DNA from: Prochlorococcaceae cyanobacterium jk18x1bzbins.87
GTDB taxonomy: Bacteria > Cyanobacteriota > Cyanobacteriia > PCC-6307 > Cyanobiaceae
Direction of reading: 5' to 3'
Assembly (NCBI GenBank): GCA_022826535.1
Contig: JAJDUS010000104.1
Span: 1 to 34,730 of the forward strand
DNA length: 34,730 nucleotides
Shown one piece after another: positions 11,370 through 18,023 of the stretch (within the stretch, counting starts at the first letter, position 1; each line of letters opens with the position of its first letter). The position numbers and the translations under genes were made by a program. The notes under the pieces are model-generated. The model was given only the letters and a program-made list of their open reading frames with translations. It was not told where the DNA came from and did no database searches.

Positions 11370-11430
11370 ACAGAATCAGAGCTCTGGGAAAGCAGTAGGT
11401 AACCCCAGCTCTGGGGATAAGGAGGCCTTA

Positions 11431-12293
11431 GGATCAGGACCCATGATGTGAGGAGTGATCCTCTCAGTACAGAGGAACTCCCAAGCAGACATCAGGAAGA
11501 TGAGTGATGACTCAAGTTGTTTTGGCTGGGCGAAGAGCAGGTTGCACGTATCCGCGCCTCCTTCCCCAGGGAACAGGGTGTGAAGCGGGTGGATGGCAGG
11601 AAGGTATTGAGCGGCATCGTCCATGGACCCAGAGTGGCTGGCGGTATGTGGATGCCCCAGCTGCCGATGAACCCCACAAAAAAACCTTACGACCATTTCC
11701 ACTGTTGGTCAGACAACAGTGCCTTTGACATGATCTCTTCCAAGTTGACAGAATCTGACCCCACAGAGCCACCTGATCCCATAGAGCCAGATGTGCTGAT
11801 GATTGACGCCACTGACAGACATCAAAGTCCATCGCACGGCCTCCAGCCCCAATAAGGGGAGCTGAAACCGGCTTGATCAGCCGGATCAAGGGAGACATAA
11901 CCAGCAAACTCCATGTGGTCTGCGATAGCAAAGTGTTGTCCCCTGCATTTGCACCTGAGGAAAGGGCAGGCGTGACTTCACTGGCGCTGCTGTGCTGCTG
12001 AGGAACCTGCCGCCTGCCGCCGCAGTGATGGGCGGGCGGCAAAGGATATGACAGGGACAAAATCCGTAAGACGCTGGCACAGCAGGGCATCTCCCCTTGC
12101 ATCCCATCTCACCCTAGCCCCAAGAAGACCGTCCATTACAGCAAAACATTTTACCAAATGCGCCACAAAATCAAGAATCTATTTTCCTTACTGAAGAACC
12201 GGCGGCGTATTGCAGCATGTGATCACTGCACTCCATCTTCCGCTCTGCCATTCTCCTGGCCACTATTGTCGTTTTCTGGAATGAGCCTGATCC
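11431..12293 (+). mobile_element. IS427-type (IS5 superfamily) element, copy 1, decayed
   Basis: Left end GGATCAGGACCCATGATG at 11431 and right end AATGAGCCTGATCC at 12280-12293 are inverted relatives, and both match the ends of a second element at 16955-17813 (863 and 859 bp long). Inside lies a broken transposase: GEEQVARIRASFPREQG and VDGRKVLSGIVHG, then VLMIDATD (first catalytic Asp), a GDITSKLHVVCDS segment, GYDRDKIRKTLAQQGISPC, and MRHKIKNLFSLLKNRRRIA with the final catalytic-Glu region altered. The pieces are spread over several frames with internal stops, so the element is inactive. Confidence 0.82.
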
Positions 12294-12343
12294 TGGACCA
12301 GGCTCAGATCCTTGCCCATCTCTCTCCCCACTCACCTGAACTC

Positions 12344-13163
12344 ATGCCCATCTGCATGCGTCACCTGTTGGCCAGTTCTGCTGTGGCTGGTCTTCTCGTT
12401 CTCCTCCCTGTGGGAGATGCCAACGCACAGGACAACAGGAACACTTGGGGCTGGGGTACAGCAGGGGGGGGGGGTGATGTTAAGCTTCATTGCAATTGCA
12501 GCAGCAGGAGGTGCAGTGGGCGGCAGTAGCATCACCAGTTGGCTGTTGTTGCAGCGCAAAGGTAAACGAGACGATGAAGTAATGGAACTTGACCTTAAGC
12601 AAGTGAATAACAATATCAAGATATTGGACAAAAAATTAACAAAACTAGAAATGGAAATTATTCAGAGATTGAGTCCTACCCTAGAAAGTAAAACAGACTC
12701 AGAGAGCGCAGTGAACATGGGAGATCACGAAAAATTGCCTCTTCCTCGCATAAACAAAGACCCACTGGCCCGAGCAGACGAAGAGCTAATGAAGATTGAA
12801 AGAAAAGTACGTGAGATGGAGATAAAGATCAAACGTATTCCTGGTGATGAGCTCATGTCCACAGGAGATGCTGTTAGGCATCTGCTTCACGTAGAGGTGA
12901 AAGAAGCCGTCGAAAAAATCATATCTATAACTGGTATTTCAGATTCACAGATACCACCATATCCAGGAATTTTAGATAATATGAGCATTGCTAAGCGCTG
13001 GCTAAAGAATACCCGAGAAGTTCTTGATATGCATAATCCAAGCAAACCAAGTCGCAAGCAAGTCAAGAGCTATGAACGAAATAATGTTAATCGCAACCCT
13101 AATATGCCAGACCAAGACTATGGATTAGATCCCCAGAATCCTTGGGAGATATCAAAAGGCTAG
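12344..13163 (+). pseudogene. Conserved-leader coiled-coil membrane protein, member 1 (out of frame at a G11 tract)
   Basis: The frame from ATG 12344 (or 12356) gives a signal peptide, MRHLLASSAVAGLLVLLP then DANAQ, and QDNRNTWGWGTA, and then runs into eleven consecutive G at 12464-12474. Past the tract the related frame is the next one: MLSFIAIAAAGGAV membrane segment, LLLQRKGKRDD positive stop-transfer, and a charged coiled-coil tail to 13163. Removing one G (or adding two) joins both parts into about 272 residues that align with member 3 through IKILD-KKL. After that the tails differ. The tail is clearly richer in A+T than the neighbours. This may be a phase-variable gene in the OFF state, a true pseudogene, or a homopolymer miscall. 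Function unknown; the topology suggests a membrane anchor with a cytoplasmic coiled coil. Confidence 0.72.
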
Positions 13164-13577: not shown

Positions 13578-13740
13578 ATGCGGCTTCCCATGCGTCACCT
13601 GTTGGCCGGTTCTGCTGTGGCTGGTCTTCTCTTTCTCCTCCCCGTGGGGGATGCCAATGCACAGGACAACAGGAACACTTGGGGCTGGGGTGCAGCAGGA
13701 GGTGTTGTGTTAACCTTCACTGCAGGCGGTGCAAGCAAGA
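13578..13740 (+). pseudogene. Conserved-leader family, member 2 (leader only)
   Basis: ATG 13578 begins a third copy of the leader: MRHLLAGSAVAGLLFLLP, DANAQDNRNTWGWGAAGG and VVLTF. After about 54 residues the similarity ends at GGASK, exactly where the IS427-type end sequence AATGAGCCTGACCC begins (13741). The frame then runs on out of phase through the start of member 3 to a stop at 13922. This is a leader-only fragment cut at an IS end. Confidence 0.72.
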
Positions 13741-13786: not shown

Positions 13787-14851
13787 ATGCCCATCTCCAT
13801 GCGTCATCTATTGGCCAGTTCTGCTGTGGCTGGTCTTCTCGTTCTCCTCCCTGTGGGAGATGCCAACGCACAGGACAACAGGAATACTTGGGATTGGGGT
13901 GCAGCAGGGGGTGTGGTGTTAAGCTTCATTGCAATTGCAGCGGCAGGAGGTGCAGTGGTCGGCAGTAGCACCACTAGTTGGCTTTTGTTGCAGCGCAAAA
14001 GTAAACGAGATGATGCAGTTAATGAAAAGCTAGAAAATGTATTAAATGACATTAACAGATTGACTAGTGCTGAAGCAGAATTGAATAGTAGTATCAAGAT
14101 ATTGGACACGAAATTAAATGGCGTTAATGAGTTGACTAGTACTCTGGAAAAGAAAATTGATAATCTCAGGAATGAAAATGAGGCCCTAAACGATCTTGAG
14201 CAGGAGCAGGAGAAATTTCAGGAGCTTCTAAGGAAATGTGAGGATGAGAAAGGATCACTAGATAAGGAAAAGATTGAATTACAAAAAATACTAAAAGACC
14301 AAGAATCAAATATAGATAAACAATGGAAAATCATGAAAGATAATTGTAAAGAAGATGAAAAGAAGAATCAAAAGATAAACTCTATTAATTATCTAAAATT
14401 GATCAAATCTTCCAAATCTGTTAGTTGTTATGATTGTTTGAACGCAATCAAGAAATTATTGCCTGACTCTTTAAAAATATTACCAGAGGCTGATAAATCA
14501 GCTAAGGATCATGAGAAATTTACAAATATTGATCAACTCTTTGAACTGCTTTGGAAGCTTGGCACTGACTTCCAAGAGCGAATGCGGCCAGAGGGATCAC
14601 GCTCATCTGAAATTGTCCAAGCTGTCTTTAGTAAAGGACAATATGCTCCCTATTCCAGCAAAAAGAACAAAGGCGGCAAACGTAAATGTCCTACTGTTAA
14701 ATACAAAGGAAAGACTATAGAAATGGATGAGCACCTGAAAATAGGTGGTGGTGGAGAGGGAGCACCAGAGAACTCTTGTCTACGTATTCATTTCTCTTGG
14801 GATGTCGAAAGCAAAAAGGTTTTGATTGGCCATTGTGGGAAGCACCTTTAG
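13787..14851 (+). CDS. Conserved-leader coiled-coil membrane protein, member 3 (intact)
   Basis: A 354-residue protein of unknown function. Residues about 5-28 are a signal peptide with a DANA-Q type cleavage site. A short Trp-containing segment (QDNRNTWDWGAA) precedes a Gly/Ala-rich hydrophobic helix (VVLSFIAIAAAGGAVVG) and the positively charged LLLQRKSKRDD, which would place the rest in the cytoplasm. From about residue 75 to 195 a long, highly charged coiled coil follows, then a Lys-rich part with Cys residues (SVSCYDCLNA), and a compact C-terminal stretch ending CLRIHFSWDVESKKVLIGHC-GKHL. That last motif recalls uncharacterised bacterial proteins I cannot name. The DNA of the tail is much more AT-rich than the neighbours. 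The start could also be the ATG at 13799; no Shine-Dalgarno sequence is evident. Confidence 0.8.
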   Translation: MPISMRHLLASSAVAGLLVLLPVGDANAQDNRNTWDWGAAGGVVLSFIAIAAAGGAVVGSSTTSWLLLQRKSKRDDAVNEKLENVLNDINRLTSAEAELNSSIKILDTKLNGVNELTSTLEKKIDNLRNENEALNDLEQEQEKFQELLRKCEDEKGSLDKEKIELQKILKDQESNIDKQWKIMKDNCKEDEKKNQKINSINYLKLIKSSKSVSCYDCLNAIKKLLPDSLKILPEADKSAKDHEKFTNIDQLFELLWKLGTDFQERMRPEGSRSSEIVQAVFSKGQYAPYSSKKNKGGKRKCPTVKYKGKTIEMDEHLKIGGGGEGAPENSCLRIHFSWDVESKKVLIGHCGKHL

Positions 14852-15085: not shown

Positions 15086-15808
15086 ATGCGCAAAAGCACG
15101 ATGCCTCGAGGAGTGACCACTCCCATCACCCAGACCATCTCCACCGCCTATGAGACGGCAGAGGCCAGTGTGCTGCGAACGCCACCGCCTGATCTTCCCT
15201 CCCTGCTGCTGCGGGAGCGGATCATTTACCTGGGCCTGCCCCTCTTTTCCGATGACCAGGTGAAGCAACGACTGGGGCTGGACGTGACCGAACTCATTAT
15301 TGCCCAGTTGCTCTATCTGGAGTTTGACCAGCCGGACAAGCCCATTTTCTTCTACATCAATTCTACGGGCACCAGTTGGTACTCCGGTGAGGCCATTGGT
15401 TTTGAGACCGAGGCCTTTGCCATTTGCGACACCCTCCGCTACGTCAAGCCACCGGTCCACACCATCTGCATCGGTCAGGCCATGGGCACTGCCGCCATGA
15501 TTCTGTCCGCCGGCGCCAAGGGGTATCGGGCCGCTTTGCCCCATGCCTCCATCGTCCTTCACCAGCCCCGCAGTGGCGCCCGGGGCCAGGCCAGCGATAT
15601 CCAGATTCGCGCCCAGGAGGTGCTGCAGAACAAGCGCACCATGCTGGAAATTCTGGCCGCCAACACGGGTCATACCGTGGAGGAGTTGGGCCGGGATTCC
15701 GACCGCATGACCTATATGACAGCCACGGAAGCCAAGGACTACGGCCTGATTGACCGGGTGCTCACCAGCAGAAAGGAACTGCCCGCAGCACCTCCTCCAA
15801 CCCCCTAG
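15086..15808 (+). CDS. clpR: ClpR, inactive Clp protease subunit
   Basis: A ClpP-fold subunit of the Clp protease core that lacks its own catalysis. At the nucleophile position, where ClpP3 next door has GQAASMGAF, this protein has GQAMGTAAM, putting Gly134 in place of Ser. The His is kept (LHQP, about residue 159), and the catalytic Asp position holds Met208 (DSDRMTYM). In cyanobacteria ClpR assembles with ClpP3 into a mixed ring that works with ClpC. The gene lies 35 bp upstream of clpP3 in one operon. The start may instead be ATG 15101 or GTG 15113; the first 30 residues are poorly conserved in this subunit. Confidence 0.92.
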
Positions 15809-15843
15809 CCCCACTCGTTTCTCCCCTCACCACCTCTTGTCCC

Positions 15844-16440
15844 ATGCCCCTCGGAACCCCTAGCGTCCCCTATCGCTTGCCCGGCAGTCAATTTGAACGC
15901 TGGGTCGATATCTACACCCGCCTTGGGGTGGAGCGGATCCTGTTTCTGGGCTCTGAAGTCACCGATGCGGTGGCCAATGCCCTGGTGGCCCAAATGCTGT
16001 ACCTGGACTCCGATAACACCAAACCCATCTACATCTATATCAACTCACCAGGTGGTTCCGTCACGGCCGGCATGGCCATCTACGACACCATCCGCTACGT
16101 GAAATCCGATGTGGTGACCATCTGTGTGGGGCAGGCCGCCAGCATGGGGGCGTTTCTCCTGGCCGCCGGCACGAAGGGGAAGCGCTCGGCCCTTCCCCAC
16201 AGCCGCATCATGATCCACCAGCCCAGCAGTGGCGCCCAGGGGCAGGCCAGCGATATTGCCATTGAGGCCAAGGAAATCCTCCGCAACCGGGACAGTCTCA
16301 ATCAGGAGTTGGCCGCCATGTGTAACCAACCCGTGGAGAAGGTGGCCAAAGACTCGGACCGGGACTTCTTCATGGGTGCAGCAGAAGCCAAGGACTATGG
16401 CCTGATTGATCGGGTTATTGCCCACCCCAGCGAGGCGTAG
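15844..16440 (+). CDS. clpP3: ATP-dependent Clp protease proteolytic subunit, ClpP3 type
   Basis: Serine protease subunit of the Clp core. The full catalytic triad is visible: Ser100 (GQAASMGAF), His125 (MIHQPSSG) and Asp174 (SDRDFFMG). Length (198 residues) is standard. Pairing with clpR immediately upstream is the conserved cyanobacterial arrangement, which is the basis for the ClpP3 label. A GC-rich inverted stretch just after the stop (about 16450-16470) could act as a terminator. Confidence 0.94.
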
Positions 16441-16549: not shown

Positions 16550-16954
16550 GTGGATTCCAAAACCGCCTTTGCTGCCGTTGCCCATTGCGCTGTATACGCT
16601 GATCTGGAGACCAGCGATATGGAGCTAACCGCGTTTGTTAATGAGCTGACGGCTCGCCACCCCTACAAGACCATGGAGAAGGCCGAATGGGATTCTCTGA
16701 TCGATGAGTTGTGGGACCGGCGCCGCAAAGATGGGTCAGGAATCCTACTGGCCGAAGCAACGATAGCCTTGAGCCTTGAGCAGCGGCTCACCGCCTTTGC
16801 CGTGGCCTGCAAAATCGTCGCCAGCGATGGGGAGATTAACGATGACGAGGCCGGATTTCTCATCAATCTCGCTGAGACCATTGGCCTCACGAGGGAGGCA
16901 GTTACTGGCATTGTCACAACGATGAAGGTTCTCTGCCGGGAGGTTTTGCCCTAG
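16550..16954 (+). CDS. TerB-like domain protein, copy 1
   Basis: A 134-residue, probably cytoplasmic protein. Its C-terminal half, from RLTAFAVACKIVASDGEINDDE to INLAETIGL, fits the TerB/DjlA all-helical fold with its acidic metal-binding type loop (SDGEINDDE). The molecular role of this fold outside tellurite-resistance operons is unclear, and no ter genes are nearby. The start is a GTG (VDSKTAFAAV); the paralogue at 18024 starts the same way with TTG. The stop codon abuts the end of an IS427-type element. About 65% of residues are shared with copy 2. Confidence 0.78.
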   Translation: MDSKTAFAAVAHCAVYADLETSDMELTAFVNELTARHPYKTMEKAEWDSLIDELWDRRRKDGSGILLAEATIALSLEQRLTAFAVACKIVASDGEINDDEAGFLINLAETIGLTREAVTGIVTTMKVLCREVLP

Positions 16955-17813
16955 GGTCAGGACTCATCACCAGAAGAGGCCAATGGCGGCCAGGAGGATG
17001 GCGGAGCGGAAGACGTGGGCGCAACGGTGGTGGCGGGTTGCAATGGGCCGTCAGTCCTGCTGTCGGGAAAAGAGCGTCTCGATTGTGTGAGGCCTGCGAT
17101 ACGGCCTCTTGTGGTCATGGACTGGCTGCTTGGGGCAGCGACGGGGCGGGAGGCAAGGCGTGATGCCCTGCCGGGCCAGCATCTTGCGGATTTTGTTGCT
17201 GTCATACCCTTGATCCCCCATCACCGCAGCACCAGGCGGCAGGTCTTTGTGTACCCCATCAGCACCAGTGAAATCGCTGCATTGCCCTTCTCTCAGGTCC
17301 AGCCGCAGAGGACAACCTTTCCTGTGACAAACCCCATGGAGCTTGCTGGTCATGCCCCCCTTGGTGCGGCCCATCAGAGGGGGGTCAGACCCCCTTGTTG
17401 AGGCTGGACGCCCTGGGATGGGCTTTGAGATCGGTGGCGTCAATCCTCAGCACCTCTGGCTCTGCGGGATCGGGTGGTTCTACGGCATCGGATGCTGACA
17501 ACTCAGAAAAGATCAGGTCACAATACCCTTGTCCGACCAGCGGCGGAAGTGGTTGTCGGGGATTTTGTGGGGACCATAGGCCGCCGGGGCATCCATCCAG
17601 CTCAGATCGCTCCGGGTCACGTCGATGATGCCGCTCAACACCTTTCTGTCACCTACCCGCTTCACACCACGTTCCTTGGGAAACAAGGGGCGGATGCCTG
17701 CAACTTGCTCCGCACTGAGCCCAAACAACTGGGCCATCAACTATTCTCCCGGTGCTCTCTTAGGGCGCTCTCTCGCCTGAGCGGGCCACTCCTCACATGA
17801 TGGGCCCTGATCC
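16955..17813 (-). mobile_element. IS427-type element, copy 2, decayed
   Basis: The ends are inverted repeats: GGTCAGGACTCATCA at 16955 on the plus strand and GGATCAGGGCCCATCA reading in from 17813 on the minus strand, matching copy 1 at 11431-12293. The transposase runs on the minus strand: LSAEQVAGIRPLFPKERG, KVLSGIIDV and WMDAPAAYGPHK, then GRTKGGMTSKLHGVCH, QCSDFTGADGVHKDLPP, MGDQGYDSNKIRKMLARQG and HTIETLFSR with the Glu region. Frame changes near 17430 and 17515 and loss of the first catalytic Asp region leave it inactive. The insertion is immediately after the stop of TerB-like copy 1, between the two paralogues. Confidence 0.85.
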
Positions 17814-18023
17814 CAATGCATTGAGTTCCACAAGATGATCAGGTGTCTTCGCCCTTGATGGCTGTCTTGGGGCGATGGGTCATGGAAGAGTGCCAAGGAT
17901 TCCCACATCCCAACCCAGCCAGGCGCCAATGGTCATAGATCCTTAACAGTGGTTCCTGGATCATGGCAAGCCAAGGGCAAGGCAGCTAAAGCGAAATGCA
18001 CTCAACTTGTCTTTCTGTTTTCC

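What the first reader, a model, noticed from the sequence alone, without database searches (positions are those of the whole stretch)
12464..12474. Eleven-G tract at the leader/anchor junction: possible ON/OFF switch
Eleven consecutive G follow the leader of member 1 and place the membrane anchor and tail one base out of frame; ten G would restore it. The intact member 3 has GCAGGGGGTGTG at the same place, so the tract has grown. Long G runs in the 5' coding part of surface genes are classic slippage sites. Most such switches are known from pathogens, not cyanobacteria.
Basis: partly seen in the sequence, partly recalled or inferred. Interest (0 to 1): 0.6.

Follow-up and report, generated by a model that had tools for sequence, protein, structure and literature searches.

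The report
G-tract frameshift in a duplicated gene
In a sponge-associated cyanobacterium, a run of eleven Gs has knocked one copy of a small gene family out of frame; the break is real and easily reversible, but comparisons suggest ordinary DNA slippage in a spare gene copy rather than a built-in ON/OFF switch.

Summary
There are exactly 11 G at 12464-12474, between a signal-peptide leader (ATG 12344) and a membrane anchor plus coiled-coil tail. The leader frame ends after 61 codons; the anchor/tail frame is open for 228 codons after the tract.

The genome is a "Candidatus Synechococcus spongiarum"-type sponge symbiont. The leader family is confined to this genus (5 of 10 species; 0 of 390 other Cyanobiaceae sampled).

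Three results weaken the "surface-gene switch" reading. (1) The tract is not conserved: paralogues and congeners have 0-5 G there. (2) Tracts of 10 or more G/C are common in this genome (35), and 12 conserved genes (IlvA, ChlB, TauE, BioF, MoaA and others) carry them in frame. So homopolymer length is probably assembled correctly, and long tracts are not dedicated switches. (3) Two congeners fuse the same leader/anchor to a PIN(-TRAM) nuclease, and intact member 3 ends in a domain matching candidate anti-phage protein HEC-07. The tail is therefore probably cytoplasmic.

A congener shows the same accident: acetate kinase frameshifted by an 11-C tract that eight other species lack.

Best reading: a recent, reversible slippage frameshift in a redundant paralogue. 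A true contingency locus is not excluded; it needs raw reads or strains.

The parts
12464..12474 (+). 11-G homopolymer that shifts the frame between leader and anchor
   Evidence: Direct reading; pattern search; listed among 35 tracts of >=10 in the genome
12344..12529 (+). Member 1, leader ORF as assembled: signal peptide MPICMRHLLASSAVAGLLVLLPVGDANA|QDNRNTWGWGTAGGG, then out-of-frame residues and stop (61 aa)
   Evidence: Translation; leader and anchor 91% DNA identity with member 3 over 12320-12587
12477..13163 (+). Member 1, anchor + coiled-coil + unique tail (228 codons, open). ATG 12477 is a possible independent start; the same codon is GTG in member 3, G004, G005 and G009
   Evidence: Translation; junction table; tail without homologue in 300 Cyanobiaceae apart from the coil part; AF2 model, low confidence, helices 32-69, 96-120, 126-152, 169-186, 193-204
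13578..13733 (+). Member 2: leader and start of anchor only, running into IS-derived/upstream sequence of member 3 (truncated copy)
   Evidence: 80% identity to residues 2-52 of member 3; alignment
13787..14851 (+). Member 3: intact paralogue, 354 aa; leader, anchor, long coiled coil, C-terminal domain matching PADLOC HEC-07 / NsnC
   Evidence: ORF; hmmscan PADLOC E=6.7e-14 full length, 9.1e-14 for the C-terminal 154 aa alone
11425..12294 (+). IS5-type transposase remnant directly upstream of member 1; homologous (72%, opposite orientation) to 16953-17819
   Evidence: blastn; weak Pfam PF13340 hit for 11517-11852
15086..16440 (+). ClpP-type proteases (clpR-like 15086-15808 and clpP 15844-16440) directly downstream; same neighbour order in G009 and G005
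   Evidence: ORFs; G009 and G005 loci; names from my reading of the sequences

Best explanation
Member 1 is a tandem paralogue in a small, genus-restricted family of membrane-anchored coiled-coil proteins with exchangeable C-terminal domains. After the duplication a short G-run at the leader/anchor junction grew by replication slippage to 11 G, which put the anchor and tail one base out of frame. As assembled, member 1 makes at most a short leader peptide and is OFF (shown: sequence and frames). Because the tract is long and the rest of the frame is open, the lesion is probably young and can revert by the same slippage (inferred). Most likely this is a mutational by-product tolerated because member 3 next door is intact and the family is dispensable across species, not a switch kept by selection (inferred).
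For: The tract, the frames and the intact paralogue were confirmed. No equivalent tract exists in paralogues or congeners: 5 G in member 3 and G004, 4 G in G009, none in G005. The family is dispensable: present in 5 of 10 species of the genus and absent from 390 other Cyanobiaceae. A second member of the family is also broken between leader and anchor by another kind of lesion: G009 has an in-frame TGA there with 316 open codons beyond. Member 2 is truncated. Long tracts are a general feature: 35 in G000, 36 in G009, 1 to 23 in the other congeners; 12 conserved genes hold them in frame. The same accident occurs in a housekeeping gene of a congener: G009 ackA has an 11-C tract that breaks the TPLEGL motif, whereas eight other species of the genus have 2-4 C there and an intact frame.
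Against: No further stop or indel has accumulated in 228 codons, as expected for a very recent event or for a frame still in use. Leader and anchor diverge from member 3 with similar proportions of silent changes (3 silent/4 replacement and 5/5), so the anchor has not visibly decayed. A second 11-G tract in this genome lies in frame inside the signal peptide of an ankyrin-repeat protein (L105), an arrangement typical of contingency genes.
Confidence: 0.52

Rival explanations
1. A true contingency locus: slippage of the G tract reversibly switches member 1 ON (10 or 13 G) and OFF (11, 12 G), and selection (phage, host) maintains the tract.
For: Length, position in the 5' coding part and intact downstream frame. 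Tract-length diversity among copies of a poly-G repeat in the same genome (12-15 G) suggests G tracts change length here. Ankyrin signal-peptide tract of 11 G. Member 3's tail resembles candidate anti-phage proteins, a class in which switching would make sense (inference).
Against: Tract not conserved in any relative or paralogue; equally long tracts in housekeeping genes; tail probably not surface-exposed. The paper search found no described cyanobacterial example, which is weak evidence because the library is partial.
Confidence: 0.2
2. The break does not silence the tail: translation starts again at ATG 12477, directly behind the G-run, giving a leaderless anchor-tail protein, so the tract only decides whether the leader is attached.
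For: All five aligned junctions have ATG or GTG at this codon (GTG in member 3, G004, G005, G009; ATG only in member 1), with a G-rich stretch just 5' in most. G009's member has a stop before the same codon and a 316-codon open frame after it.
Against: A GTG here is simply the conserved valine before LSF. The G-run lies very close to the ATG for a ribosome-binding site. Intact members in G004, G005 and G000 keep the leader in frame. No expression data.
Confidence: 0.13
3. Assembly or sequencing error: the real tract has 10 (or 13) G and member 1 is intact.
For: G homopolymers of 11 are error-prone; the genome is a fragmented assembly (145 contigs) and the reads were not available.
Against: Twelve tracts of 10-12 G/C in conserved genes are all in frame (the S24 peptidase), and a check of other tract-flanking frames found no conserved domain split by a tract, only transposase remnants. 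Had lengths been miscalled often, some of these would be broken.
Confidence: 0.12
4. RNA polymerase slippage on the G tract yields a fraction of in-frame mRNA, as for poly-A tracts of insect endosymbionts.
For: Precedent in Blochmannia and Buchnera at poly-A/T tracts (PMC3017870).
Against: In transcriptome-wide data from E. coli and Buchnera all insertions within homopolymer runs were in A/T runs, none in G/C (PMC5574713).
Confidence: 0.03

Closest known systems
Homopolymer contingency loci (poly-G/poly-C phase-variable genes of Neisseria, Helicobacter, Campylobacter)
   Same: Long G tract in the 5' coding part, one-base frameshift, intact frame beyond
   Different: No evidence of length variation; tract not conserved; comparable tracts sit in housekeeping genes; product probably cytoplasmic-facing, not surface-exposed
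Homopolymer frameshifts in symbiont genomes (Blochmannia, Buchnera poly-A/T; PMC3017870)
   Same: Single frameshift in a homopolymer in an otherwise intact symbiont gene
   Different: G/C tract in a 58% GC genome (window value), where transcriptional rescue is less likely; the gene has an intact paralogue
PIN-TRAM membrane proteins (neighbouring gene in G004 and G009)
   Same: G005 and G004 members of the leader family carry tails 39% and 33% identical to its PIN(-TRAM) part
   Different: Member 1 and member 3 tails are not PIN domains
PADLOC HEC-07 / NsnC candidate anti-phage proteins
   Same: C-terminal 154 aa of member 3 (E=9e-14); a homologous domain ends 533-aa and 528-aa proteins on Pseudomonas plasmids
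   Different: N-terminal halves differ; member 1's own tail does not match; function of the domain unknown to me and untested

Membership tests
Homopolymer contingency (phase-variable) locus | Homopolymer of about 8 or more in the coding 5' part whose unit change alters frame | tested here: met
   11 G at 12464-12474, frames on either side
Homopolymer contingency (phase-variable) locus | Tract kept at the same place in paralogues or related species | tested here: not met
   5, 5, 4 and 0 G in member 3, G004, G009, G005
Homopolymer contingency (phase-variable) locus | Tract longer than genomic background / special to the gene | tested here: not met
   35 tracts of >=10 in the genome, many in housekeeping genes
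Homopolymer contingency (phase-variable) locus | Length differs between cells or strains and alters expression | not testable with these tools
   No reads and no second genome of the same species available; the genome contigs pattern scan returned only SP3 (G005) and SB0668_bin_13 (G004)
Homopolymer contingency (phase-variable) locus | Product is surface-exposed or otherwise under diversifying selection | tested here: inconclusive
   Topology inferred cytoplasmic from PIN-TRAM tails and basic residues after the anchor; defence-like tail in member 3
Ordinary pseudogene | Accumulated stops, indels or relaxed constraint after the first lesion | tested here: not met
   228 codons open; none of 20,000 base shuffles of the unique tail is stop-free. 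A recent lesion would also pass.
PIN-TRAM nuclease (member 1 itself) | PIN domain in the tail | tested here: not met
   No Pfam or NCBIfam hit above cut-off; low-confidence all-helical model

The most novel reading that the evidence does not exclude
A cyanobacterial sponge symbiont uses slippage at poly-G tracts in leader or signal-peptide regions (this gene, and the ankyrin-repeat gene with 11 G in its signal peptide) to switch membrane-anchored defence-type or host-interaction proteins ON and OFF.
Probability: 0.15. Interest if true: 0.7.

Novelty: new member of a known kind. Interest (0 to 1): 0.33.

Why it matters
If the tract varied between cells it would be, as far as the papers searched show, the first slippage switch described in a cyanobacterium, in an animal symbiont and in a gene family with nuclease or defence-type tails. 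As it stands it is a clean example of homopolymer frameshift in a symbiont genome, with internal controls (12 in-frame tracts) that make a read-level test straightforward.

Tried and rejected
A protein scan of genome contigs found no relative; a DNA-pattern scan found only two congeners, so no same-species strain comparison was possible. RNA structure around the tract is ordinary (z = -0.66). Promoter/terminator scan: no promoter-like site on the + strand near member 1; the + strand terminator-like hits lie inside the leader of all three copies and are coding. Codon-usage scoring could not rank the AT-rich tails: antisense frames scored as well but held stops. Structure models were low confidence and a PDB fold search gave nothing below E = 1. 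Phage records: no match.

Full report
OBSERVATION. The window is a whole contig (G000:C25, 34,730 bp) of a 2.49-Mb, 145-contig genome. Eleven G lie at 12464-12474. The leader frame from ATG 12344 ends at 12529 after 61 codons; the anchor/tail frame is open from 12477 to 13163. Member 3 (13787-14851) is intact with GGGGGTGTGGTG at the same place; member 2 (13578-13733) is a truncated copy. Members 1 and 3 are 91% identical over 12320-12587.

ANATOMY. Leader: a signal-peptide-like segment with an AxA site (DANA|QDN). Then a short polar stretch, a hydrophobic anchor (about 39-57 of member 3), basic residues, a coiled coil and a variable tail. In G005 and G004 the tail is 39% and 33% identical to the PIN(-TRAM) part of the gene that sits next door in G004 and G009. 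Pfam hits to PIN are below cut-off, so the pairwise comparison carries this point. In member 3 the tail is a domain matching PADLOC HEC-07/NsnC; G009's tail gives a weaker NsnC hit. The same domain ends hypothetical proteins on Pseudomonas plasmids. Member 1's own tail has no homologue found and a low-confidence all-helical model. clpR/clpP-type genes follow directly in G000, G005 and G009; IS5-type remnants flank the copies in G000.

IS THE TRACT SPECIAL? Genome-wide there are 35 G/C runs of 10 or more (lengths 10 to 17). Runs of exactly 7 number 495; extrapolating the decline gives roughly 16 expected at 10 or more, so long runs are about twofold in excess (hand estimate). Eleven conserved genes carry a tract inside a Pfam domain and in frame: IlvA (12), ChlB, PucC, CysS, a Na/H exchanger, BioF, MoaA, a PstA-like permease, CoaX, TauE (11) and a biotin/lipoate ligase (gene names beyond the Pfam domain are my reading). 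An S24 peptidase holds one just before its domain, also in frame. Frames on either side of the remaining tracts show no conserved domain split, only transposase remnants. So tract lengths in this assembly appear reliable and long tracts are not reserved for switches. A dispersed repeat with a poly-G core (CGCTGC-Gn-ATAGTAC) shows n of 12 to 15 in different copies, suggesting that G tracts change length in this lineage, although the copies may be old.

PARALLELS. G009's family member has an in-frame TGA (at the TGG of the other members) between leader and anchor and 316 open codons after it. G009 acetate kinase has an 11-C tract in the TPLEGL motif that shifts the frame, with both halves otherwise intact; eight other species of the genus have 2-4 C and an intact gene there. 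So frame-breaking homopolymers hit unrelated, cytoplasmic genes in this genus. This favours a general mutational process over a locus-specific switch.

AGE OF THE LESION. Member 1 and member 3 differ by 3 silent and 4 replacement changes in the leader and 5 and 5 in the first 35 anchor codons, so the anchor is no more decayed than the leader. About 4.5% of single substitutions in the frame would create a stop. At roughly 5% divergence on the member 1 branch this predicts only one or two stops had the frame been free since duplication, so the absence of stops is weak evidence.

MECHANISM AND RIVALS. Replication slippage at homopolymers and its reversibility are established for contingency loci generally (PMC10710837). 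Transcriptional rescue is known for poly-A/T in symbionts (PMC3017870), but in E. coli and Buchnera insertions in runs were confined to A/T (PMC5574713), making rescue at G11 unlikely. Internal initiation at ATG 12477 is possible; the codon is GTG in the other four aligned members. A 99-genome survey found poly-G/C runs generally under-represented in genes (PMC2831843).

VERDICT. Observation confirmed; "surface-gene switch" only partly supported. Most likely a recent, revertible slippage frameshift in a redundant copy of a dispensable, genus-restricted family. Contingency switching remains possible and is testable from reads.

Noticed in passing
L105 (G000:C114:9778-9788, minus strand): An 11-G tract lies in frame inside the predicted signal peptide (MAKFALVFFLVAALGGGVRQVQA) of a 198-aa ankyrin-repeat protein, a better-shaped contingency candidate than the assigned one.
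   Followed up: partly
L130 (G009:C43:72492-72502), with a partial second copy at G009:C43:68719-68729: Acetate kinase gene of a congener is frameshifted by an 11-C tract in the TPLEGL motif; eight other species of the genus have 2-4 C and an intact frame.
   Followed up: yes
L133, L136, L139, L141, L143, L144 (G000) and L134, L137, L140, L142 (G008): Dispersed repeat of about 110 bp with a poly-G core (CGCTGC-Gn-ATAGTACAGAGTTACTGG) of variable length, apparently outside conserved genes; nature unknown.
   Followed up: partly
window 13787-14851; G005:C70 (L016); G004:C183 (L017); G009:C40 (L018): Genus-restricted family with a constant leader/anchor and exchangeable tails (PIN-TRAM or HEC-07-like) next to clpR/clpP or a PIN-TRAM gene; possibly effector or defence proteins.
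   Followed up: partly
L018 (G009:C40:93215-93217): In-frame TGA between leader and anchor in G009's member, with 316 open codons downstream.
   Followed up: yes
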